A DNA stretch of 64,000 nucleotides from Paguma larvata (taxonomy: Eukaryota > Chordata > Mammalia > Carnivora > Viverridae). Under the pieces are notes generated by a model that was given only the letters and a program-made list of their open reading frames with translations, made no database searches and was not told the origin of the DNA. The stretch lies in the NCBI GenBank assembly GCA_030068075.1, contig CM057843.1, positions 10,062,001 through 10,126,000 on the forward strand. Reading direction: 5' to 3'. The translations under genes and the position numbers were made by a program. This document shows, piece after piece, positions 6,347-64,000 of this stretch; the stretch's first letter is position 1; each line of letters opens with the position of its first letter.

Positions 6347-6605
6347 GGGGGCGCCTGGGTGGCTCAGTTGGTTAAGCGGCCGACTTCAGCTCAGGTCATG
6401 ATCTCACAGTCTGTGAGATCTCTCACAGTCTGAGAGTCTCATGATCTGTGAGTCTGTGACTTCGAGCCCCATGTCGGGCTCTGTGCTGACGGCTCATCAG
6501 AGCCTGGAGCCTGCTTCAGATTCTGTCTCCCTCTCTCTCTGCCCTTCCCCTGCTCACTCTATGTCTCTTAAAAATAAATAAATGTTAAAAAAATTAAAAA
6601 AAAAA
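6347..6605 (+). mobile_element. Felid CanSINE
   Basis: The head gggcgcctgggtggctcag, the TC-rich stretch and an A-rich tail are all present. An internal partial duplication of the ctcacagtctgtgag block lies at 6400-6450. Target-site duplication aaaaagctc(a/g)tttt is at 6333-6346 and 6606-6619. Confidence 0.97.
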
Positions 6606-6619
6606 AAAAAGCTCGTTTT

Positions 6620-6850
6620 GGGGGAACCTAGGTGGCTCAGTTGGTTAAGCATCCAACTCCTGATATCAGCTCAGGTCATGATCTCAAGGTCGTGAGATCG
6701 AGCCCCACCTAGGGCTCCCATGCTGAGCATGAAGCCTGCTTGGGATTCTCTCTCTCCCTCTTTCCCTCTCTCTCTCTCTCTCTCTGCCCCTCCCCCACTT
6801 ACACATGCTCTCTCTCTCCCCCTCAAAATAAAAAAAATAAGCTTAAAAAG
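6620..6850 (+). mobile_element. Felid CanSINE
   Basis: It follows the previous SINE directly, beginning just after its right-hand target repeat. It has the head aacctaggtggctcagttgg, a long (TC)n block at 6750-6785 and an A-rich tail. Confidence 0.95.
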
Positions 6851-12169: not shown

Positions 12170-12830
12170 CAATCAAAATATTTAACCAAAGGGAATCTAT
12201 GCAAAAATTCCGGAACCACGTCACTGTTTACAGCAGACCAGAAATTGAGAACAGTCCCTTGGTTCAATATTGCAAAGACCAGTTAAAGAAATCTTGGCAT
12301 ATAAAGGAATACTAAGTGATCATCAAAAATGATTCCATATAAGAATACATTAAAAAATATTAAGTGAAAAAAACACATCACAGGGGCACCTGGGTGGCTC
12401 AGTCGGTTAAGCATCCGACTTCAGCTCAGGTGATGCTCTCACGGCTTGTGAGTTCGAGCCCCAGTCAGTCTCTGTGCTGACAGTTCAGAGACTGGAGATT
12501 GCTTCGGATTCTGTATCTCCCATCTCTCTCTGTCCCTCCCCCCTCTCTCCGTCCCTCCCCCACTTGCACTCTGTCTCTCTCAAAAATAAACATACATTAA
12601 AAAAAAAGGAAAAAAGAAAAAATCGGATTACAAACAGTATCTATAATGACCCCTAGTTTTGTACCAAAAAAAGTGTGTGTGTGTACAATAGAAGTTAAAT
12701 ATGATTATGATTAGCAAAAGCAACAGTGATGTTACCACTGGGTAAAAGGACTGCAGATAAATTTTCCTTCTTTTTATTTTTTTATTTGTCTACAATGAAC
12801 ACATACTCTTTTCTACTAAGTACATGTTTA
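12170..12830 (+). mobile_element. Ancient L1 3' end split by a SINE
   Basis: L1/HAL1-like 3' sequence occurs on both sides of the CanSINE at 12383-12608: left, aaaaatgattccatataaga; right, an accactgggtaaaagg-like block and ttatttgtctacaatgaaca. Confidence 0.55.
12383..12608 (+). mobile_element. Felid CanSINE
   Basis: The head ggggcacctgggtggctcag, the CT-rich stretch and the tail aaaaataaacatacattaaa. It interrupts an older L1 end. Confidence 0.95.
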
Positions 12831-12846
12831 AACTTCTTAAATATTC

Positions 12847-13302
12847 TGGGGCACCTGGGTGGCTCAGTCGGTTAAGCGGCCGACTTCGGCTCAGGTCATA
12901 ATCTCACAGTCTATGAGTTCGAGCCCTGCGTCAGGCTCTGTGCTGACGGCTCAGAGCCCGCAGCCTGCTTCAGATTCTGTGTCTCCCTCGCTCTCTGCCC
13001 CTCCCCCACTCATGCTCTGTCTCTCTCTGTCTCAAAAATAAATAAACATTGGGGCGCCTGGGTGGCTCAGTCGGTTAAGCAGCCCGGCCGACTTCAGCTC
13101 AGGTCATGATCTCGTGGTTCATGAGTTTGAGCCCCGCGTCGGGCTCTGTGCTGACAGCTCAGAGCCTGGAGCCTGCTTCAGATTCTGTATCGCCCTCTCT
13201 CTCTGCCCTTCCCCTGTTCATGCTCTGTCTCTCAAAAATAAATAAATGTTAAAAAAATTAAAAAAAAAAATAAACATTAAAAAATAATAATAATAAAAAA
13301 AT
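12847..13302 (+). mobile_element. Felid CanSINE (outer copy of a nest)
   Basis: The body spans 12847-13050; the tail resumes at 13268-13302 after a nested SINE. A perfect 17-bp target-site duplication aaacttcttaaatattc is at 12830-12846 and 13303-13319. Confidence 0.96.
13051..13267 (+). mobile_element. Felid CanSINE nested in the tail of another
   Basis: A complete copy placed in the A-rich tail of the outer SINE. The short target repeat aataaacatt borders it on both sides (13041-13050 and again near 13269-13278). Confidence 0.95.
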
Positions 13303-13319
13303 AAACTTCTTAAATATTC

Positions 13320-14020: not shown

Positions 14021-14272
14021 TTAAACAAGTGAGGAAATGATCGTATATACAACATGCCAGCGAGCACACACACACACCAAAGGAAGTCGAGAGGGCTTTT
14101 TTTTCAGGACACAGAGCTGGATGTCAGCGGCTAAAAGGTCGATATTTTCCCTTAACACCCTTCTCAATGACTTAATCATGTTCCGTTTGCACAGAAAACT
14201 TCCCAAGAATAAAAAAGTCTGGAGAATTAAGAGGAGGGGTGAATGGGGAGGGATGTTTGGCCTGGGGCTGAC

Positions 14273-14474
14273 CTTATCCGAGGTTTTCTCCACGTAGCAG
14301 GGGTCCTGAGGGGCAGCCAGCAAGGGGACAAAGCCCGAGAGAAGCCGATCCTCTTCCAGGATAAGAAGGGTGAGGTCATCGTCCGGGTCCTTGTACAGTG
14401 GCACCTCAGACTGATTCACTGCAGTCAATATGTTACAGAAATCAGCCAGCATCGACCACACATCCATAGCAACC
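14273..14474 (-). CDS. SMG6: SMG6 internal exon (third)
   Basis: The third SMG6 exon on the minus strand. The first G completes CA|G (Gln). The exon then reads VAMDVWSMLADFCNILTA, NQSEVPLYKDPDDDLTLLI, EEDRLLSGFVPLLAA and PQDPCYVEKTSDK. This is the last helical part of SMG6 before the acidic linker and the C-terminal PIN nuclease domain. The acceptor is strong (a long pyrimidine run ending tttctcacag). The donor is AAG|gtcagc, with an unusual C at +3. The exon is 202 bp and ends on a codon boundary. The intron before it (14475-26412) is 11,938 bp. An open frame continues past the donor to 14021 but loses SMG6 similarity there, so I end the exon at 14273. The following exon is not in the window. 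Confidence 0.95.
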
Positions 14475-15019
14475 CTGTGAGAAATAAGGTAAGAAAAGAA
14501 GAACAGCTCTAAAGAGGAACCAGTTAAAGTATTTTAAGCACTTTTGAGAACCGAGGTACTGGTGGCAAATGCTGTCTATGGCTGGCATTTGCCAGGAAAT
14601 CTTACCCAAAAAGCTAGGGTACAAAATTGTATCCATGGCAGCAATCTGGCGGGCAAGTGTCCATCTATTTCAATCAAAGTTGAAATTGATTAGGGGGAGT
14701 TTTAAAATCCTAACCAGGGAGGAAAAAGAATTTAGACAATCGGTTGCCTAATGCAGGTCCTGTCACCTTTCCAGACAGTGTGCCTGAGACACTTACTCAA
14801 ACACTCTAGACACCCAGGGCCTGAGGCAGCTCCCAGAATTCCCCCACTTCTGTCCAGCCAAGTATATGCCACAAGACAGTAACAGAACGCCAATCTTCCC
14901 CCCTCCCATACAGCCACAGGGGCCAGTCACACCATGGAAAGTCACGTGGGTTTTCCATCTTATAATGCTTTAGAAATCTCTCCCTATATATAAGCACGAA
15001 AATAGACAAATAAACCAAC

Positions 15020-25750: not shown

Positions 25751-26412
25751 ACATCACACAAACAGATCTACACAGACACACCCAGGCAGACACACACACT
25801 CCCCAAAGCAACATACCTCACCCTGACAAATGTTTTGACAGACAGCATGCTGACACCCAGAGACAAGGAGATGGGAAGTGAAGTGAACAAAAGAGAGAGG
25901 TGTGTGCAGTCACCCTCCTCACACGTCACAACGTGTGAGAGGAAGGCCCAAGCAGCAGCGTGGGGAAGACAGCATAAGGAGCAGCGGGATGCAGCCTGAA
26001 GGACGCATGGAGACAAACTAGAAGGGAGAGTAAGAGATAAGGCCTCTCCTCACGCTACCGACGCACACCAGACTCCAGAGGCTGCTAAAGAGATGGTGGG
26101 CACAAACAACATGAAGTGAGAATGAGAGAGCAAGAGGAAGGACAGAGAATAAAACAGCAAGCTTTGGGGTGAGAGAGGAGGACAGAGTGAGCAGAGGAGG
26201 GACGGACTGGAGAACAAGGGAAAACAGCCTAAAGCATCAGGGGACAAGGAAGGTGTTCAAGGAAGGGAAAAAGCAAAGTTCAAATGAGGAGGGACAGGAG
26301 GAACAAGCAGGTGGCGGGTGAGAGGACGACACACAGAGGACCAGGAGGGGGGCCGTGGGAGCACAGGTGGGCTGAGGTCAGCAGTGCTGAAGGAGCGAGC
26401 AGGCCGACTCAC

Positions 26413-26581
26413 TGTGAGGGCAGGTCCAGGGATGTGGGCGGAGGGTTCCAGGTGTCTGGGTAGCCGAGCATCCAGTCTGACCAGACTTTCACACTGGGGA
26501 GCAGTTCCTTCAGGTCCGGGACGAAGGAAGACACCTTGATGTCATCTTGGTCATCCTCGTCCTCAGGAGAGGACAGCTGAG
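26413..26581 (-). CDS. SMG6: SMG6 internal exon (second)
   Basis: The second SMG6 exon on the minus strand. It begins with CT, completing the Ala codon left open by the upstream exon, and then reads [33 protein letters not shown] and [19 protein letters not shown]. An acidic loop is followed by a conserved Trp-rich helical segment near the C-terminal end of the SMG6 helical region. The acceptor is cctctgcag and the donor is CA|gtgagt, a perfect consensus. It is 169 bp long and ends after two bases of a codon. The intron before it (26582-28179) is 1,598 bp. There is no stop in frame. The reading frame is closed in the flanking intron, so the exon limits come from splice signals and the protein match rather than from an ORF. 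Confidence 0.95.
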
Positions 26582-26879
26582 CTGCAGAGGCAAAGGGTGA
26601 GAACTGGGCCTAGGTCTGCTGTGGCCCACGAGTGAGGCCTGGGGCGCTGGGACGGCAGCAAGCTCTTAGGGAAGGGAGACCGAGTCCACAGGAAAGCTGG
26701 GCCCAGAAGCGGAGGACAAGTGCCAGCACCTAAGAGGATTCTGAAAAGCAGGACAAAGAGAGAACCAGTGCACTGGGTCTGCCCCTGCAGACAGCTGTTT
26801 CTGCTCCACCTGCGGCCTGGCTGAAGTTGCCACTCTGGCCTCTAACCCTCCCCTTTTAGCTTTCTTTCAGCACAGCTCT

Positions 26880-27515: not shown

Positions 27516-28179
27516 ACCCTCCCTCCAAAAAACAACTGCTCCAGGGTCTGGAGGCACCCGCAAAGTTGAAGCGGCAGAGGGACAACAGCGGGGCCTCAAT
27601 AAGCACCAATACTGATCCAGGAGCTGAGAGAAAGGGGCAACCTTCAGCCCTACCTTACACGGCTCAGCAATCAGGCTTAGATTTCTACAGGCAGCCTTAA
27701 TGGATATGGGGACACTGCTCAACGCAAGGGCTAAAAATAGCCCCTGCTCTGGTTCAGTGAGTCTCACAAGGTGGCTGGTCCACCGTGGTTATAGCACTCA
27801 CCGACACCAGACAAAGAGGGACATAGAGATAGAGGGGGAAAATGAAAACATCAATTATGAACAAAAAAGGAAACGCTCTTTGCTGGTGTTCTAAAGTTGC
27901 AGGAACCCGCAGCAGCTTTTAGGTACACTGAAAATCTTAACTACTAGAGAAAGGGGGGAGGGGATAGTTCCCCTAAGGACAGAGGGCCACAGAGGTACAC
28001 AGAATGCAACAGGAGGTGGGACTAGTTAGGTGGGCGGAAGGAAGAGGGGGCACAGGGAAGAGGAAGAATGTCAAGTAGAGGGCGGAGACGCCGAGAAGGC
28101 AGCGCAGCTTCCTGAGCTTGTCTGGACAGGGCCCAGGCAGGGGAAAGGGCATCAGTCAGGGCGCCCCTCATCTCCTTAC

Positions 28180-28296
28180 CTTTGGCAGACTCCTTAAGTA
28201 AGCAGGTGCAGCGCCGCACCAGGAGAGAAAACATGGCCAGGCCCAGCGCTGCTGCTTGCTCCTGGATCACAGAGCGACACTCCTCTGAGAAGCAGT
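28180..28296 (-). CDS. SMG6: SMG6 internal exon (first of three in window)
   Basis: Internal coding exon of the SMG6/EST1A endonuclease, which cuts mRNAs near premature stop codons during nonsense-mediated decay and was also described as telomerase-associated. Read on the minus strand the exon gives (D)[13 protein letters not shown], then [14 protein letters not shown] and CLLKESAK, which I recognise as SMG6. It encodes an amphipathic helix at the end of the TPR/14-3-3-like helical region. The acceptor is cctcag with a weak pyrimidine tract; the donor is AAAG|gtaagg, close to consensus. The length is 117 bp. The exon starts with two bases of an Asp codon and ends on the first base of an Ala codon, which the next exon completes. 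The preceding exon was not found up to 64000, so the upstream intron is longer than 35 kb. Identification rests on recalled protein sequence, without alignment. Confidence 0.93.
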
Positions 28297-28369
28297 CTGA
28301 GGACATGCAAATGACACTCCATCAGTGCCCTGGGGGCCAAGGTCTACTCTTCCCTACCTTGCTAGGTGC

Positions 28370-55379: not shown

Positions 55380-56255
55380 AAAGATGAGCAGAGACTACAC
55401 AGAACTATAAACAATAAAACACGGAAAAAATGCCCATTCTCACTAGTAATCAAAGAAATGCAATTTAAAACAAGATAAGTTGGAAAACAGTTTAGCAGTT
55501 TCTTACCAAACTAAACATAGCCTTACCAGATGATCTAGTAATCTCATTGTGTGGTATCTAACCAAATGAGCTGAAAACTATGTCTACATAAAAACCTGCA
55601 TACAGATGTTTATAGCAGTTTTATTCATAACTGCCAAAACTTAAGAGGAACCAAGATGTCCTTCAGTAGGCTAACTGGTAAATGAACTGTGGTATATTCA
55701 GACAATAGAGATCATTCAGTACTGAAAAGGAATGAGCTATCAAGCCATGAGAAGATGTGGAGGAACCTCGAATGTGTATCAGTAAATGAAAGAAGTCAAC
55801 TGGAAAAAGGCTACATGCCATATGATCCCAACTATAGGACAGTCTGGAAAAGGCAAAACTATGGAGACAGTAAAAAGATCAGTGGTTACCAGAAGTTAGG
55901 GAGAGGGAGAGATGAACGGGCAGAGCACAGAGGAGTGTTAGGGCAATGAACTTACTCTGTGTGATACTATAATGGTGGATACGTGTCAGTACACACTTGT
56001 CAAAATCCAAAGAATTACAAGATCAAAAGTAGACCCTTAATGTAAACTATGGGCTATAAGTGATAATGATGTATCAATACAGGTTCATCAGTTGTAACAA
56101 ATGCACCACTCTGGTTCTCAATATTGACAGTAGGGGAGATGGTGCATGTTTTGGGGGCAGGAGATATATGGGAACTCTCTGGTCTTCCCGATCAATTTTA
56201 CTATGAACCTAAAACTTCTCTAAAAAGCAAAGTCTATTTAAAAAAAAAGAAGAAA
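55380..56255 (+). mobile_element. Ancient L1 ORF2 end and 3' UTR
   Basis: L1 end blocks in order: ttggaaaacagtttagcagt, agcagttttattcataactg, catatgatcccaactatagg, then the UTR with gtaaactatgggctataagt and caccactctggttctcaata. Confidence 0.9.
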
Positions 56256-56339
56256 AGAAGTGGGTTTTATTCTTCTATCATTTACTCAACAAATACATGA
56301 ATGTTTACATTGTGCCAAGAACTATAAAGCATTAAGAAC

Positions 56340-56890
56340 ACATTCATGCCAGCAAGAGGTGGAAGCTGGGCATCTCAAACACTGCTGTTAAGGAGTGTAA
56401 GCTGGCACAACTTCCTGAAAAGTAACCCAGCATCATGTATCAAAAGCATTGAAAGACTTCAAACTCTTTAACCCCAAATCTGAGCTTCTAAAAATATATT
56501 CTAATAAAACAATATGAAATACAGGCAAAAGGTTTATGTATAAATATGTTAATTATAGCATTATTCACAATACTAGAAAAGTGGGGGGAAATGTCCAAAA
56601 ACAGGATAAGGATTAAGTGAATTTTAACCTATTCATAAGAGAATATTATTCAGCCATTAAACATAATAAAGAATTTTATAACTTTGAATACCTCTAAGTG
56701 AAAACAGTAGACTCAAACATCTTTATATGTATTTTTTCAACTATGTTAAGAAAAACTTGAATATTCATACATACATAAAGGAATGAATGTCATTGCTGGA
56801 AAATTGGTTTACAGGTAGTTTCCAGCTTTTTCCCATTTTTTTAGTACTCTCAACAAAAACGAAAATGTTAAATCTTTTTAAGAAAATATG
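56340..56890 (+). mobile_element. Ancient L1/HAL1 3' fragment
   Basis: tatagcattattcacaatac, attattcagccattaaacat and a terminal tttcccatttttttagtact block fit an old L1 end. Confidence 0.6.
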
Positions 56891-56892
56891 AA

Positions 56893-57075
56893 GGGGCGCC
56901 TAGGTGTCTCAGTCGGTTAAGCGTATTCAGCTCAGGTCATGATCTCACGGTTCGTAAGTTCAAGCCCCATGTTGGCCTCTGCGCTGACAGTGCAGAGCCT
57001 GCTTGGGATTCTCTCTCTCCCCCTCTCTTTCTGTCCCTCCCCCACTCTCTCTCTCAAAACAAATTAATTTAAAAA
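56893..57075 (+). mobile_element. CanSINE, slightly deleted
   Basis: The head ggggcgcctaggtgtctcag. A small deletion removes part of the region after gttaagcg. It ends in a TC block and an A-rich tail. Confidence 0.93.
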
Positions 57076-57484
57076 ATTAGTTTACATAAAGAGGACAAAA
57101 TTGCTCTAGTTAAGTGAGATTAAAAATACAGTAAATGAGTAAAGAAGAACTAAAAGAATATTATGTGCAGGAAGAAAGGACAGAGAATAAATGATGGAAG
57201 ATTTAGGAGATGAGAAAGGACAGAACTTCTACTGTTCTCTAAGAAATTTGCTTTCCAGAGCCCCAAAGACATAGATTCCAGGATTAATAGTAAATACCAA
57301 AACACACTAATGTATTTTAATTTAATGTTGGGATACAAAATATGTATTTGGAAATTACATTTTCTGAGAAGACAGAAAAAACAACAAAGAAAAAATAAAA
57401 GGATGACAGTAAGATTATCAACAATGACCCAAGATAACAGATGCCCCAGGCCCTGCCTTTCAATCTGCGATGCCCAGGCTGACT

Positions 57485-58110
57485 TGTTGAACACATTCAT
57501 TGAGAACTTACAGCACACCGGGCGCTGTTCTAGAGGCTCGTACTATATCAGGGAACGAAACAGGGCAAGGAGCCCTAACTGCACGGAGTGTAAGTTCTTG
57601 AGGAGTGGCAGGAGAAATAAGTAATAAACATATGCCCCAAAAATGAGTCACCTAGTACTGAGAACACAAGTTGTGAAAAAGAAAATGGAGCGGGATACAG
57701 AGGCAATCGAGGGGCGCACGGTGGGAGTGCAGCACTGTTGATAGGATGATCGGGGCGGGCCTCGCGGCGATACCGTTTCAGCAGACTTATAGGAGGTGAG
57801 GTGTCTGCCGTGCAGACGGCTGGCAGCAGAGCATTCCACCAGAGAAGACTGCTAATGCAAAGGTTCAAAGATGGGAGAATCCCTGGCTTATCGGAGGACC
57901 TGCAAGAAGGCCAGTGTGGCTGAAGCAGAGTAAGCAAGTCAGGGGAAGAACAGTAGCAGCAAATGAGGTCAGACAGGCGATGTGGGAGGGTGGGGAGGAG
58001 GGGGAGTTCTCTTGTAAAGACTGTGGCTTTGCTCTGACTGAAATGGGAAGCCAGTGGAGGATTCTGAACACAGTGACATGATCTGATGTTTTCAAACGAA
58101 TCACTGCTGT
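57485..58110 (-). mobile_element. L2 LINE: ORF2 C-terminus to 3' end
   Basis: Minus strand: a frame around 58104-57865 reads KTSDHVTVFRILHWLPISV, matching the L2 ORF2 C-terminal motif (SDHVTPLL..LQWLPI). The 3' end near 57490-57600 has the attcattgagaacttacagc and gcgctgttctagaggctcg phrases. It retains many CpGs near 57690-57780. Confidence 0.85.
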
Positions 58111-58120
58111 ATAGAGAGCA

Positions 58121-58310
58121 GTATGTGTGTGTGCGCGCGCCCGTGTGCCCGCGCATGCGTGTCAACGTGTGTGTGTGTGCGCGCGCGCCCGTGTGCCCGC
58201 GCATGCGTGTCAACGTGTGTGTGCGCGCGCGCGCCCGTGTGCCCGCGCATGCGTGTCGACGTGTGTGTGTGTGCGTGTGTGTGTGTGTGTGCGCGTGCGC
58301 GTGTGTGTGT
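58121..58310 (+). repeat. GT/GC minisatellite, three units of about 47 bp
   Basis: Alternating purine-pyrimidine tract. Three copies of a unit containing cccgtgtgcccgcgcatgcg start at 58140, 58188 and 58234, followed by pure GT/GC repeats. It gives the Cys/Arg/Val-rich shadow frames here. It is predicted to favour Z-DNA. It abuts the L2 edge. Confidence 0.95.
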
Positions 58311-58748
58311 TTAGAGGGGGATCAAGAGAGACCACTTAGGAGTTTCAAGTCTTTCTGGATTGTCTTTCCCTTCATGTTTAAAAAGAAGTTTATGGGGTAT
58401 GCAGGCCATGTTTACATAGAGGATTTTCTCTTACAACGTGGAATCTTCAATGTGTCAATGGCCTGCGATTGTATCCTTAGCAGGCATCTCAAAATAATGA
58501 TTACCAAACATTTCTCTCTACTCACTGCCCTGACACGAGTTCTGGGCATCACCCTCTCTCAGGGGAGAGGTGAAAAGAGGTTATGCAGAACAAGCAGTGA
58601 TAACAGGATGACGTCACAGGTGTGCCTCAAAGAAGCCCCCAGTGAGTTCGGCTCATAACCACTCTACAGTGATTTACTCTACCCTGCCAACGCCAGCTGC
58701 AGAAGGGATGAAGAAAGCTGACACAGCCATAAGCCTTGGGCAGGCATT

Positions 58749-58836
58749 GTAAGATCTTTCTCCCTCCAGTCCCCTGCCAGCCCCTCCCCTCTTCAACCGC
58801 TGATCCTTGCTTCAGAAGCCAAAGTGTGAACAGCAC
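58749..58836 (-). other. Source copy of the 88-bp transduced segment
   Basis: This intron segment is repeated without a mismatch at 60815-60902, inside a SINE insertion. No SINE adjoins it here: the sequence continues uninterrupted as cagcacgtgtctggatttca on the right and ggcaggcattgtaagatc on the left. It lies on the SMG6-sense strand of the intron. No exon could be supported. Confidence 0.95.
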
Positions 58837-59911
58837 GTGTCTGGATTTCAAAAACCTGCCCAGCAGTTGGAAATTCCCTACCGCGTGTCAACTGCTGCAT
58901 CTGCTGTTGGCACTTGGGGCAAGGGATCACAGGGGCATTTTCTGAAATAAGCTTCAGGATGGGAGTCCTGCATCTGAAGAGGGGCCCAAAGAAGCCAGAA
59001 AACTGCAATTACAGTAAATAAATTTCTAAATATGTGACAATCTGCCTTCTAAACTGAGACATACAAGCCAAGTAAACAGCTCTAAGAACAGTAGAAGTCA
59101 AGAACAAAAGCACAGAGCACCCTGACTAATGGAAAAGATTTTATGGGCCAACAAGGGTTCAGCAGATATGTAATGTAATGTGGCTGAAACCAGAGAGCAC
59201 TCTTTTCCAGATCTCTAGCTCAGACCCTTTTGGTAATAAACGGTTTCTATCACTTCAGCTGCAAGCCTCCCTTTACCTTTCTTCCCCACCCAAGTAGTCT
59301 TCTAAGTAGTCTACACCTTGAACACCTCTTGGAAAAATTTTAAGATGTGAACCCAGAAATACCATCTCCCATAAAATTAGACAGCTGGAAAAAGAGCTAC
59401 TCTTTGAAAAGCAGCCCACATGCCCTTGCCGCCCGGAATACAGGTGCCCCTGTCACACTGCTCCAGGCAGAGCTAACCAAATGCTCAAGTCTGATGGTAA
59501 AAAGAAAAAAGAAGTCACAGCATTTTCTCTAGTAACATGCCTGGCAGATTAGGTACCTCAATCTACTCTCCCAAGGAAACGACTAGTTATCCTGGAAAAA
59601 GTATTTTAAAAATCTTTTTAGAAAGCATACATGAGTTAGGAAAATTAAAAAGGAATCTTCTAGTCAGAGATTGAGTAAAGATGGGAAACTAGAGGTAAAA
59701 GTGTGCATGCAATATAGCCAGATGTTACCCTAAGACCCTAATGGTCTTTCCCTAAGACCATTTGCTGCCTGATGAACTTGAGCTTTGGTTTCCAAAGCTT
59801 CATGGCTACAGCTAACCTAAGAGGATGCCCAAAATCTCTGCCATTAAGCTGGGATCCTACAGCACTACATCCAAGGTATGAGGGTAAATCAGAAATAACC
59901 CTCGGCCCCAT
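58837..59911. other. Unassigned intron sequence
   Basis: No gene or clear repeat recognised. Confidence 0.4.
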
Positions 59912-60130
59912 GGGACGCCTGGGCGGCTCAGTCAGTTGGGCGTCCAACTTCGGCTCAGGTCATGATCTCGTGGTTCGTGAGTCTGATCCCCACGTCGGCC
60001 TCTGTGCTTATAACTCCAAGCCTGGAGCGTGCTCCAGATTCTGTGTCTCCCTCTCTCTCTCTGCCCCTCCCCTGCTTGTGCTCTGTCTCTCTCTCTAAAA
60101 ATAAATAAATATTAAAAAAAAAAAAAAAGA
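59912..60130 (+). mobile_element. Felid CanSINE
   Basis: The head gggacgcctgggcggctcag, a (TC)n block and a tail of aaataaataaatatt then A12 with GAAA units. Confidence 0.96.
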
Positions 60131-60320
60131 AAGAAAGAACGAACCCATGGCCCCTTGATAAGACAGTTGGAAAACTGACTATGTCGAACTCTAGGGCTGA
60201 CTAGGAGAGGAAAAATATTGCACTGAAAATATGGACCATGCACTCGCCCTCACAGGAGTGCGCAGCCTGAATTCACATTACCTGAGTGGTCTGTAAATCC
60301 TCAAGCAGATATTTAATTTA

Positions 60321-60552
60321 TTTTTTTTTAATTTTTTTTTTTTACATTTATTCATTTTTGAGAGACACAGAGAGAGAGAGACAGAGCATGAAGAGGAGAG
60401 GAGCAGAGACAGAGGGAGACACATAATTGGAAGCAGGCTCCAGGCTCCAAGCTGTCAGCACAGAGCCTGACGCGGGGCTCGAACTCACTGACTGCAAGAT
60501 CATGACCTGAGCTGAAATGGGATGCCCAACCGACTGAGCCACCCAGGCGCCC
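60321..60552 (-). mobile_element. Felid CanSINE, minus strand, recent
   Basis: The T-rich tail is on the left and the head complement gagccacccaggcgcccc on the right. Target repeat cagatatt(t)taattta is at 60306-60320 and 60553-60568, differing by one inserted T. Confidence 0.97.
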
Positions 60553-60790
60553 CAGATATTTTAATTTAGAGTGATTATTTTAGATTGGCCAAACCAGGCG
60601 GTGGACAAAAGCAAACTTGAGTCCTTTTCCCAATTTTCATCCCAGACTTCCAAGCACTCCTACTAATGAAATTCCAAAGAAAATAAGAAAAAAAAATTTA
60701 ATTGCACAAGAAACAAAGCACAACCAGCAGAAATAAGAGCTTAGCAGAAACTTATCTAAAAGGCCCCCTTATTCATAGAGTCTTAAATAA

Positions 60791-61121
60791 CCATGTTAGT
60801 ATACTTTTTTTTTTGTAAGATCTTTCTCCCTCCAGTCCCCTGCCAGCCCCTCCCCTCTTCAACCGCTGATCCTTGCTTCAGAAGCCAAAGTGTGAACAGC
60901 ACACTTAAAGTTTATTTATTTTTGAGAGACATAGAGACAGAGTATGAGCAGGGGAAGGGCAGAGAGAGAGGGAGATACAGAATCTGAAGCAGGCTCCAGG
61001 CTCCGAGCCGCCAGCACAGAGTCCGACGCGGGGCTCGAACTCACAGACCGTGAGATCATGACCTGAGCCAAAGTTGGCCGCTCAACCGAGCCACCCAGGC
61101 GCCCCCATGTTAGTATACTTT
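60791..61121 (-). mobile_element. Chimeric SINE insertion: CanSINE plus 88-bp non-SINE segment
   Basis: A single retrotransposition unit in minus orientation. From right to left: target repeat (61105-61121), SINE head to tail (61106-60903), 88 bp copied from 58836-58749 (60902-60815), a poly(A) tail seen as ten T (60805-60814), and the target repeat ccatgttagtatacttt again (60791-60807). The empty site would read cttt|aaag, a good L1-endonuclease nick. The 88 bp match their source perfectly, so the event is young. Confidence 0.93.
60903..61106 (-). mobile_element. Felid CanSINE body of the chimeric insertion
   Basis: A near-consensus felid copy with only a small deletion near the head (ccgctcaaccgagccaccca). 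Its tail reads aaataaactttaagt before the junction with the transduced piece, with no long poly(A) at that junction. Confidence 0.96.
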
Positions 61122-61392
61122 AAAGAAATAAAAGACAAGTTCACAAATATGTTCAGGGAACAAGAAACTACAAAAAAAAAAAAAAAAAAAAAAAGCAGAT
61201 ATGAACAAAACTATCTGGAAATAAAAACATATAAGTGAGGTAAAAAAACTCAATGGGACATATTTAGCAGACTAGATATAGCTAGGGAACAATTCGGTGA
61301 ACTGAAAGACACAGTTAAGGAAATTATCTGGAATGCAGAGCACAATACAAGAAGTCATAAAAGTGAAAGAGGCTTAAGAGACATTAAAGACA

Positions 61393-61622
61393 TGGGGCAC
61401 CTGGGTGGCTCAGTCAGTTAAGCATCCAACTTCAGCTCAAGTCATGATCTCACAGTTCCTGAGTTCAGGCCCCACATCAGGCTCTGTGCTGACAGCTTGG
61501 AGCATGGAGCCTGCTTCGGATTCTGTGTGTGTCTCTCTCTCTGCCCCTCTCCTGCTCATGTTCTGTCTCTCTCATTCTCTCTCTCAAAAACAAACAATAA
61601 AAAAATTTTTTTAAAAAGAAGA
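61393..61622 (+). mobile_element. Felid CanSINE
   Basis: The head ggggcacctgggtggctcag. Target repeat gagac(at/gc)taaagaca is at 61378-61392 and 61623-61637 with two mismatches. Confidence 0.95.
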
Positions 61623-62067
61623 GAGACGCTAAAGACACAGAGTAAGGTCTAACCTCTGACTAACTAAAGTCACAGAAGGAGAAGCAAAAGCATGGACAGA
61701 TGTAATATTTTTAAAAAGCAGCTAAGAATTTTCCAAAATTGCTGAAATCAACTCGCAGATACATGAAGCTCAACAAATCTCTAGCAGGAAGAATAAAAAA
61801 TAAACTCAAGCTTAGACAAATCATTAAAACTGCAAAACATCAAAGAGTTAAAAAAAAGTTTTTTTTAATTTTTAAAAGATCTGGAAAGCAATCAGAAAGA
61901 ATAGATTATTTTTAAAAGAGAAACAATTTGACTGATGGCTGACTTTTAATCAGCAATGGTGAAAGCCAGACACAATAAATTATCTTAAATGGGGACTGAA
62001 GGACAATAGCTGTTTACCTAGAATCCTATTACCAGTGAATATAGATCCTTTAGGAATAAGGAAAATA

Positions 62068-62312
62068 GGGGCGCCTAGGTGGCTCAGTTGGTTAAGCATC
62101 CAACTCTTGATTTCGGCTCAGGTCATGACCTCACCATTACTGAGTTCCAACCACACACTGTGCCACACTGTGTCAGCGTGGAGCCTGCTTGGAATTCTCT
62201 TTCTCTCTGTCTCTCTGCCGCTACCCCACCCATGCTCTCTCTCTCTGTCTCTCTCAAAATAAATAAATAAACTTAATGAAAATTTTAAATTAATAATTTA
62301 TTTTAAGAAAAC
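62068..62312 (+). mobile_element. Felid CanSINE
   Basis: The head ggggcgcctaggtggctcag, with a long AT-rich tail. Perfect target repeat ggaataaggaaaata is at 62053-62067 and 62313-62327. Confidence 0.97.
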
Positions 62313-62829
62313 GGAATAAGGAAAATAAAGCCTTTTAGACAAATAAAAACTAAAAAAATCTGTCATCAAAAGAACTTCACTAAATAATTCTAAAGAATAT
62401 ACTTGAGGCAGAAAGAAAATGATCCCAGGTGGAGGTTATGAAACACACACACACACACCAAAAAAAAGAAAGAAAGAAAAGAAAAGAAAAATAGTAAATA
62501 TGAGTGGATCTAAACAAGCATTTACTGACAACATAATAAAAACAACAACAAGGAAAAAGACAATTAAAATACATGACAAAGCAACCTATAAACTGGGGAG
62601 ATACAGTATAGGATTCAAGTATTCCATGGCCCCTGTATTACTTCAGAAGAGAGTGAAAATGCTGAATAACCTAACTTTTGGCAAGGTAAGTGTACGTGCT
62701 CTCATTCCTAGGGTAACCACTAATAAAAGAAAAGGAGACTAGTAGGGAAAGGGGAAGAAAGAGTGGGGAAAAATCCAAAAGAAAGAAGGAAGGGAAAAAG
62801 GGAACAGAACAGAAGAATGGGAAAGCATT

Positions 62830-63800
62830 AGGGGAAAATATCTGCAAAATATGTATCTGATAAGGGGCTTATATTCAGATCACAGAAATCTCTAAACTTA
62901 ACAATAAAGGCAAACAACTTGATTTTTCAATGGACAAAAAATTTAAGTAGGTACTTACCAAAGAAGATATACAGATAGTAAATAAGCACATGAAAAGTCA
63001 CTCACCACCCTCAGTCATTAGGGAAACACAAAATGAAATTAAAACCAAACTGAAATGGCACCGCATACCCACCAGAACTGCTAAAGTAAAGAAGACTGAC
63101 AATACCAAATGTTGGCAAGGATGCAAAGAAATCGGAACTCTGACACCCTGCTGCAAGGAATGTAAAACGGTTCAACTACTTTGCAAAACAATTTAGCAGT
63201 TCCTTATGTAGTTAAACATATACTTTACTGTATGACCCAGAACATCTACTCCTGGGTATTTACCCAAGGGATTAAAATACATGTTCACAAAAAGGCTTTC
63301 ATACAAACATTCGTGGCAATTTTGTTCATAATAGCCCAACAATAGAAACAACCCAAACATTTATCACAGGTACCTAGATAAAATGGTATTATACCCTCAC
63401 AGTAGAACACCATTCAGTAATACAAGGGAATGCAGTACTGATACATAGAAACAACATGAATAAATCTCAGACATGTGAAGCTGAGCAGAAGAAGCCAGAC
63501 AGGAAAGAGTACACACTGTATGGTTCCATTTATATGAAACTCTGGAAGAGACACAACCAGTGAATGGTGACAGAAAGCGGATCAGTGGTTTGCCTGGGGC
63601 CAGGGGTAGGAATGGAGGTCAACTGGCATGGGCACAAAGAAAACTTTTGGGGATGATGGAATGTTCAATATTTTGATTGTGAACATTAGGTACCCAGGTA
63701 TATAAACTGGTCAAACTCACTGAAGTGCACTCTTGAAATGGGTTCATTTTATTGTGTATATACTTAACCTCAGTAAAAGCTTATTTTTTAAAAATAAGAC
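62830..63800 (+). mobile_element. Ancient L1 ORF2 end and 3' UTR
   Basis: aatatctgcaaaatatgtat, accaaatgttggcaaggatg, tttgttcataatagcccaac, the gatcagtggtttgcctgggg block and a UTR ending near ttgtgtatatacttaacctc. A complete but heavily mutated 3' end. Confidence 0.9.
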
Positions 63801-63806
63801 AGTATA

Positions 63807-64000
63807 AGGACACCTGAGTGGCTCCGTCAGTTGGGCATCTGACTCTTGGTTTCGGCTCAGGTCATGATCTCACGGTTCGTGAATTCAAGTCCTGTGTCTG
63901 GCTCTGCACTGACAGTGTGGAGCCTGCTTAGAATTCTCTCTCCCCTCTCACATGGTGCCCCTACCCCAGTTGCGTGCTCTCTCTCTCAAAATAAATAAAC
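63807..64000 (+). mobile_element. CanSINE, cut by the window end
   Basis: The head aggacacctgagtggctccg, the TC-rich part and the tail start aaaataaataaac. It continues past position 64000. Confidence 0.93.

What the first reader, a model, noticed from the sequence alone, without database searches (positions are those of the whole stretch)
60791..61121. Young SINE insertion that carried 88 bp of neighbouring intron sequence
Seen directly: one target-site duplication (15-17 bp) encloses a poly(A) tail, an 88-bp segment identical to 58749-58836, and a full CanSINE. The implied RNA was SINE, then 88 nt, then poly(A), in that order, on the SMG6-sense strand. Mechanisms that fit are a 3' transduction by a SINE formerly located at 58836, or template switching during target-primed reverse transcription from an SMG6-intron RNA to a SINE RNA. 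Neither Pol III termination (no T4 at 58749) nor an AATAAA signal explains the 3' end. SINE 3' transductions and such switches are seldom documented in carnivores.
Basis: partly seen in the sequence, partly recalled or inferred. Interest (0 to 1): 0.75.

Follow-up and report, generated by a model that had tools for sequence, protein, structure and literature searches.

The report
SINE insertion carrying nearby intron DNA
A short mobile element in a carnivore SMG6 intron holds, between its body and its A-tail, an exact 88-base copy of intron sequence from 2 kb away, most likely picked up by a template switch while it was being copied in, though a later local DNA-repair insertion is almost as likely.

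Summary
The anatomy is real. A perfect 16-17 bp target-site duplication encloses a CanSINE, a perfect copy of 58749-58836, and a run of ten A/T. The SINE, the 88 bp and SMG6 all read on the minus strand.

The 3'-transduction reading is weak. The implied parent site has 0 of 6 matches to the L1 nick motif. The first T4 lies 173 nt past the segment, and there is no AATAAA in it or in the next 1500 nt. A random target would rarely land 2 kb from its source.

Setting aside the 90 bp leaves a normal SINE with a normal A-tail. Two readings fit. (1) During target-primed reverse transcription the enzyme switched to nearby SMG6 pre-mRNA and then to SINE RNA. (2) An ordinary SINE insertion was later interrupted in its A-tail by a locally templated DNA insertion. 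I favour (1) slightly (0.45 against 0.35, judgement). No orthologous locus or own genome could be searched, so the deciding test (SINE with tail but without the 88 bp in a relative) was not run. SINE-containing template-switch chimeras are known in mouse, so this is a variant of a known kind.

The parts
60791..60807 (+). target-site duplication, copy next to the A-tail (3' copy in SINE sense)
   Evidence: 17/17 identical to 61105-61121
60805..60814 (-). A-tail, A10 on the minus strand; 3 A shared with the TSD, up to 2 with the copied segment
   Evidence: sequence
60815..60902 (-). 88-bp copy of SMG6 intron sequence, SMG6-sense
   Evidence: 100% identical to 58749-58836
60903..60904 (-). two extra bases (GT in SINE sense) at the SINE/88 junction, present in neither neighbour
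   Evidence: junction comparison
60905..61105 (-). full-length CanSINE body with AATAAATAAA and a tail reduced to AA; one 4-bp contraction in the head
   Evidence: alignment with 10 window copies
61105..61121 (+). target-site duplication, copy at the SINE 5' end; plus-strand nick ACTTT/AAAG at 61121/61122
   Evidence: 5 of 6 to TTTT/AA
58749..58836 (-). source segment, 2.07 kb away, direct orientation
14270..14476 (-). SMG6/EST1A exon that fixes the gene's strand
   Evidence: (against 4um2_A)
26412..26591 (-). SMG6/EST1A exon upstream of the former
   Evidence: tblastn of P0017, P0022, P0023
28175..28297 (-). SMG6/EST1A exon, the most upstream one found in the window
   Evidence: tblastn of P0017, P0022, P0023

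Best explanation
One L1-driven insertion of a CanSINE in which the reverse transcriptase changed template. The plus strand was nicked at ACTTT/AAAG and cDNA synthesis began on an A-tail. The enzyme then copied 88 nt of SMG6-sense intron RNA, probably the nascent pre-mRNA tethered at the same locus, and went on to the 3' end of a SINE RNA, which it copied to its 5' end before second-strand synthesis made the TSD. Two forms fit. In the 'excursion' form the enzyme left the SINE's own A-tail and came back at the tail/body border. In the end-to-end form it ran off an oligoadenylated intron fragment and jumped to the SINE RNA. Shown: TSD, nick motif, order and orientation of parts, exact copy, strand of SMG6. 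Inferred: that the locus lies in an SMG6 intron, that the 88 bp came through RNA, that it came in the same event, and that the RNA was nascent.
For: One perfect TSD encloses SINE, 88 bp and A-tail. The nick CTTT/AA matches 5 of 6; 1.1% of window hexamers score 5 or more. The 88 bp is in SMG6-sense and in SINE-sense, as an RNA template requires. The two extra bases at the switch point are of the kind seen at reverse-transcriptase template jumps (recalled from work on R2, not tested here). The 8 comparable window SINEs have a first A-run of 6-15, while this body has only AA before the 88 bp; adding the distal A-run restores a tail in that range, as the excursion form predicts. LINE template switches that put a SINE upstream of another RNA under one TSD are published: mouse B2-U6-L1, repeats of 15 and 16 bp (PMC2104539, passages), and 452 Alu/L1 chimeras in human (PMC13174262, section 12). 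A source 2 kb away is what tethered pre-mRNA would give.
Against: No independent sign that the 88 bp passed through RNA: no splice junction, no AATAAA, no Pol III terminator at its end, no unusual fold (z 0.35). A local DNA template explains the 2-kb distance equally well, and an A-tail interrupted later looks the same. The SINE body has 4 non-CpG changes unique among 11 copies in 156 sites, two of them in the TC tract; if 1.3-2.6% of sites changed after insertion, 0/88 differences in the pair has P 0.10-0.01, and 0.0009 at 4%, a hint that the 88 bp is younger than the SINE. The extra GT with the preceding AA repeats the AAGT of the TSD (1 in 16 by chance for the two bases, my arithmetic), which a nested event would also give.
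Confidence: 0.45

Rival explanations
1. Two steps, DNA level: an ordinary CanSINE with an A-tail of about 7-12 inserted first; later a break or stalled fork in the A-tail was repaired with 88 bp copied from 2 kb away (fork template switching, MMBIR or end joining with a templated insert). The outer TSD then encloses everything although only the SINE made it.
For: Setting aside 90 bp leaves a normal SINE with a tail in the range of the other copies. Local direct-orientation source. 0/88 against several private SINE changes hints at a younger 88 bp. A 2-base AA overlap at the return junction. A GT/GC minisatellite, prone to stalling in general knowledge, lies about 440 bp from the source (58124-58310). 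The window holds another case of a later insertion inside a SINE tail under one outer TSD (12829-13319).
Against: The break must fall in a roughly 10-bp tail, a small target. The 88 bp need not have been SMG6-sense (1 in 2). No microhomology at the other junction, where two extra bases sit. The SINE's private changes may be inherited from its source copy; its non-CpG divergence from the majority (5.1%) is the third lowest of the 11 copies.
Confidence: 0.35
2. Two steps, RNA level: a second L1-mediated insertion of an oligoadenylated 88-nt SMG6 intron RNA at the 3' end of an already present SINE, with a 4-bp inner duplication AAGT (minus strand).
For: AAGT precedes the 88 bp and stands again after the A-run at the start of the outer TSD; it explains the two extra bases. 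SINE tails are L1 targets, see the nested SINE with inner duplication AAATAAACATT at 13040-13050 and 13268-13278.
Against: Needs the first SINE to have had almost no A-tail, unlike the 8 comparable copies in the window (first A-run 6-15). A 4-bp TSD is atypical: a survey found short TSDs only with 5'-truncated L1, not with sequences moved in trans (PMC2912911, abstract passage). GT matching is 1 in 16 by chance.
Confidence: 0.08
3. 3' transduction: a CanSINE once at 58836 was transcribed through 88 nt of flank and its copy landed 2 kb away; the parent is absent from this haplotype.
For: Order SINE-flank-A fits. Parents missing from a reference are common for L1 in dogs ('parentless', PMC12458276 and PMC13103737, passages). 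Many young dog CanSINEs lack a functional terminator of their own (PMC9599045, passages), so read-through into flank is plausible.
Against: Nick at the parent site would be GCAC/GT, 0 of 6 to TTTT/AA; none of the 17 other script-picked window SINE sites scores 0 (nine used: 2-6; eight less certain: 1-5), though 14% of all window hexamers do. No T4 until nt 173 past the segment and no AATAAA in or 1500 nt after it (an ATTAAA stands at nt 1423); the SINE's own AATAAATAAA ends 97 nt before the A-run, and in B2 a lengthening of about 25 nt already cut polyadenylation 2.6-fold (PMC10572872, passage). Even 10,000 such events would give 0.0175 within 2.1 kb of the parent in a 2.4-Gb genome (assumed size). 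[quoted passage not shown]
Confidence: 0.05

Closest known systems
Template-switch chimeric retrogenes of LINEs (U6/L1, mouse B2-U6-L1, fungal WEIRD/Mg-SINE/MGL; Alu/L1 in human)
   Same: Several RNAs fused head to tail in one orientation inside one TSD, SINE as the 5' part in the mouse and Alu cases, L1-type nick
   Different: Those use abundant small RNAs, L1 or other repeats; here the partner is an anonymous intron segment whose source lies 2 kb from the insertion site, and it sits between a SINE body and an A-tail
LINE-1 3' transductions, including parentless ones in dogs
   Same: Element followed by a unique segment and an A-tail inside one TSD, source present elsewhere without the element
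   Different: SINE rather than L1, local source, unsuitable nick motif at the supposed parent site, no termination or polyadenylation signal; the two dog surveys read in passages discard sources within 10 kb or 7 kb
Nested SINE in a SINE A-tail (12829-13319 in this window)
   Same: Two-part insertion enclosed by one outer TSD
   Different: Inner part is a complete SINE with a clear inner duplication of about 11 bp; the 88-bp case has at most 4 bp
Local templated insertions (fork template switching / MMBIR / end joining; named from general knowledge)
   Same: Short exact copy from a few kb away placed at a new site
   Different: Target here is the tail of a retroposon and the outer ends are retroposition scars

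Membership tests
CanSINE retroposon insertion by L1 machinery | tRNA-derived full-length body starting at GGGGCGCC and ending in TC tract and AATAAA repeats | tested here: met
   aligned with 10 window copies; the family name is recalled and fits the description in PMC9599045 (passages)
CanSINE retroposon insertion by L1 machinery | TSD and TTTT/AA-like nick | tested here: met
   17/17 TSD, CTTT/AA 5 of 6
Template-switch chimeric retrogene | two or more templates, same orientation, one TSD, A-tail | tested here: met
Template-switch chimeric retrogene | all parts arrived at the same time | not testable with these tools
   needs orthologous loci; the genome search did not complete
Template-switch chimeric retrogene | partner was an RNA | tested here: inconclusive
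   SMG6-sense orientation fits; no splice, PAS or terminator mark
SINE 3' transduction | parent element directly upstream of the source segment | tested here: not met
   none at 58836 in this haplotype; nick motif there 0 of 6
SINE 3' transduction | transcript end explained by terminator, PAS or genomic A-run | tested here: not met
Later local templated insertion | SINE present before the 88 bp | not testable with these tools
   no relatives available; private-change counts only hint

The most novel reading that the evidence does not exclude
L1 reverse transcriptase working at a fresh nick inside a transcribed gene copied the nascent pre-mRNA of that same gene into the insertion. SINE and L1 insertions would then record local transcription at the moment of integration, and a class of local, gene-sense chimeras would exist that surveys discarding sources within 7-10 kb cannot see.
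Probability: 0.3. Interest if true: 0.65.

Novelty: new variant of a known kind. Interest (0 to 1): 0.35.

Why it matters
If the single-event reading holds, target-primed reverse transcription can capture the host gene's own RNA at the integration site, so the orientation of such chimeras across a genome would show whether retroposition happens in transcribed chromatin. Two dog surveys, seen in passages, remove transduction candidates whose source lies within 10 kb (PMC12458276) or 7 kb (PMC13103737), and their transduction searches concern LINE-1, so this class would not appear in them. If the two-step reading holds, it is an ordinary case of a SINE A-tail acting as an insertion site in later repair.

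Tried and rejected
Pol III read-through ending at the segment's TCTT: TCTT is described as rudimentary in CanSINEs (PMC9599045, passages) and served to inactivate the B2 terminator (PMC10572872, passage), and the end lies past it at ACA; not pursued. A structured or snoRNA-like 88-nt RNA (it ends in ACAA): none of the 8 weak Rfam matches in 56000-64000 at E up to 5 overlaps the source or the insert, and the fold is no better than shuffles. Splicing as the cause of the SINE/88 junction: the source has no AG directly before GTGCTG. Assembly artefact: a TSD-bounded copy with an extra A-run is not what a misjoin gives; not tested with reads.

Dating by the SINE body: against the majority of 11 window copies it has 8 non-CpG and 5 CpG-type differences, of which 4 non-CpG are unique to it; a 4-bp contraction in the head also sets it apart. 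A protein-level survey of SINE reading frames (2709 hits, best 120 listed; all 120 counted) showed its odd residues in a minority (D33 in 11 of 120, A37 in 6 of 120, R39 in 22 of 120), so no young subfamily was identified; the sample is of unnamed species and proves little.

Searches for relatives of the locus: a 32-base pattern from the 88 bp found nothing in viral or genome contigs; phage and plasmid collections had no match; the reading frame across the insert had no homologue. The first four are not vertebrate collections, so these negatives say nothing about carnivores. Pfam gave no family for six window frames, the SMG6 exon frame among them. Exons above 28.3 kb: residues 1-90 of the turtle EST1A piece P0022 found no match in the window at E up to 0.01, which fits a long intron but does not prove it.

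Literature: ten searches were counted. No paper whose title or abstract start describes a SINE insertion carrying local intron sequence appeared in those listings; most subscription papers are not held, and Buzdin 2003 (PMC169886) is not in the library, known only from its citation.

Full report
What is there. Between 60791 and 61121 a 17-bp direct repeat (CCATGTTAGTATACTTT, 17/17) encloses, on the plus strand, T10, an 88-bp stretch identical to 58749-58836, the two bases AC, and a complete CanSINE in minus orientation. Read on the minus strand the order is TSD, SINE, GT, 88 bp, A10, TSD. If the SINE keeps the four G of its relatives the TSD is 16 bp, otherwise 17. Of the A10, three may belong to the TSD and up to two to the copied segment, which leaves about five to eight that neither explains.

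Chance is not an issue. Exact direct 40-mers occurring twice in the 64 kb are this pair, a shared SINE stretch (25342/61023) and a minisatellite (58133/58181); the only exact inverted ones are a SINE pair (13129/25309). A self-BLAST at 93% identity and 35 bp or more, with E up to 1e-5 and words of 16, lists this pair alone.

Setting. An exon matching EST1A/SMG6 (71 aa, E 1.9e-38, chain 4um2_A) lies on the minus strand; 30 proteins match its frame, three of them named EST1A or Smg-6. Comparing those 30 proteins with the window places three exons in order on the minus strand, at 28175-28297, 26412-26591 and 14270-14476. The insert lies 5' of all three in gene direction. Residues 1-90 of the longest piece (P0022, turtle) have no match in the window, so the next exon upstream may lie beyond it; that the insert is in an SMG6 intron is therefore likely but inferred. 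The SINE, the 88-bp copy and its source are all in SMG6 sense, and the source lies 2.07 kb downstream of the insertion in the direction of transcription.

How the SINE got there. Before insertion the plus strand read ACTTT/AAAG; CTTT/AA matches the L1 nick motif at 5 of 6 positions, a score of 5 or more being found in 1.1% of window hexamers. With the TSD this is ordinary L1-driven retroposition.

Where the 88 bp came from. Its junction with the SINE carries two bases (GT in SINE sense) that belong to neither neighbour; its junction with the A-run can share the two A of ACAA. Neither the segment nor the next 1500 nt holds AATAAA, and the first T4 comes 173 nt past its end; the SINE's own AATAAATAAA ends 97 nt before the A-run. 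In mouse B2 an extra distance of about 25 nt lowered polyadenylation 2.6-fold (PMC10572872, passage).

The tail argument. Eleven full-length copies were compared. This SINE has only AA after its body. The copy at 12848 is interrupted there by a nested SINE, and the copy at 13051 is that nested SINE, with an A7 run. The eight others have first A-runs of 6, 7, 7, 9, 12, 12, 12 and 15. If GT and the 88 bp are set aside, the SINE here has AA plus the distal A-run, 7 to 12 in all, which falls inside that range. The simplest description is a normal SINE whose A-tail is interrupted by 90 bp. This can arise by a reverse-transcriptase excursion during insertion or by a later event in the tail.

Against 3' transduction. 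A parent SINE ending at 58836 would have needed a nick at GCAC/GT, 0 of 6 to the motif. Of 19 SINE matches given to a script, 18 gave a candidate TSD. Besides the insert (score 5) I used nine, which score 2, 2, 3, 3, 4, 4, 5, 5, 6, and left out eight whose repeats were mismatched, displaced by 60 bp or more, or lay in a SINE tail; those score 1, 1, 1, 2, 3, 4, 4, 5. None of the 17 scores 0, but 14% of all window hexamers do, so this is an argument of degree. A new copy lands anywhere: even 10,000 such events would give 0.0175 within 2.1 kb in 2.4 Gb (genome size assumed). Absence of the parent alone is not an argument, since parentless L1 transductions are common in dogs.

One event or two. 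For one event: gene-sense and SINE-sense orientation, intact TSD, extra bases at a jump, and published precedents, among them two mouse B2-U6-L1 chimeras with 15- and 16-bp repeats read as double template switches (PMC2104539, passages) and 452 Alu/L1 chimeras in human (PMC13174262, section 12). For two events: the window has a clear example of a later insertion inside a SINE tail that a single outer TSD encloses, namely SINE 13051 in the tail of SINE 12848, outer repeat 12829-12846 and 13302-13319, inner repeat AAATAAACATT at 13040-13050 and 13268-13278. Also, this SINE body carries 4 non-CpG changes unique among 11 copies in 156 sites, two of them in the TC tract. If 1.3 to 2.6% of sites changed after insertion, no difference in the 88-bp pair has P 0.10 to 0.01, and at 4% it has 0.0009. 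That is a hint, not a proof, because the changes may have been in the source SINE; its non-CpG divergence from the majority, 5.1%, is the third lowest of the 11 copies. A second retroposition with AAGT as inner repeat is possible but asks for a nearly tailless SINE and a 4-bp repeat, while short TSDs were found only with 5'-truncated L1 in one survey (PMC2912911, abstract passage).

Why local. Both leading readings explain the 2 kb: nascent pre-mRNA is tethered at the locus, and repair or fork switching uses nearby templates. A GT/GC minisatellite at 58124-58310, about 440 bp from the source, could slow either polymerase; this is inference only.

Limits. The window's own genome could not be searched and the collections I could search hold no carnivore genomes as such, so presence or absence in relatives, the one decisive test, is open.

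Verdict. A genuine, well preserved composite SINE insertion; most likely a template-switch chimera with local SMG6 RNA, with later local DNA insertion a close second. It is a variant of a known kind. Its interest lies in a testable class of local chimeras: the two dog surveys seen in passages search LINE-1 transductions and discard nearby sources (10 kb and 7 kb).

Noticed in passing
window 12829-13319: Two full CanSINEs head to tail inside one 18-bp TSD; the inner one sits in the tail of the outer one with an inner duplication AAATAAACATT, a clear nested insertion.
   Followed up: yes
window 58124-58310: GT/GC minisatellite (period 46-48, about 3.3 copies, plus a GT tract), about 440 bp from the source segment; weak microRNA-family matches and long open frames on both strands overlap it.
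   Followed up: partly
window 60903-60906: The bases next to the SINE/88 junction (AAGT in SINE sense) repeat the start of the outer TSD; chance for the last two is 1 in 16.
   Followed up: partly
window 6347-6767: Cluster of three partial CanSINE matches in a row on the plus strand, not resolved into separate insertions.
   Followed up: no
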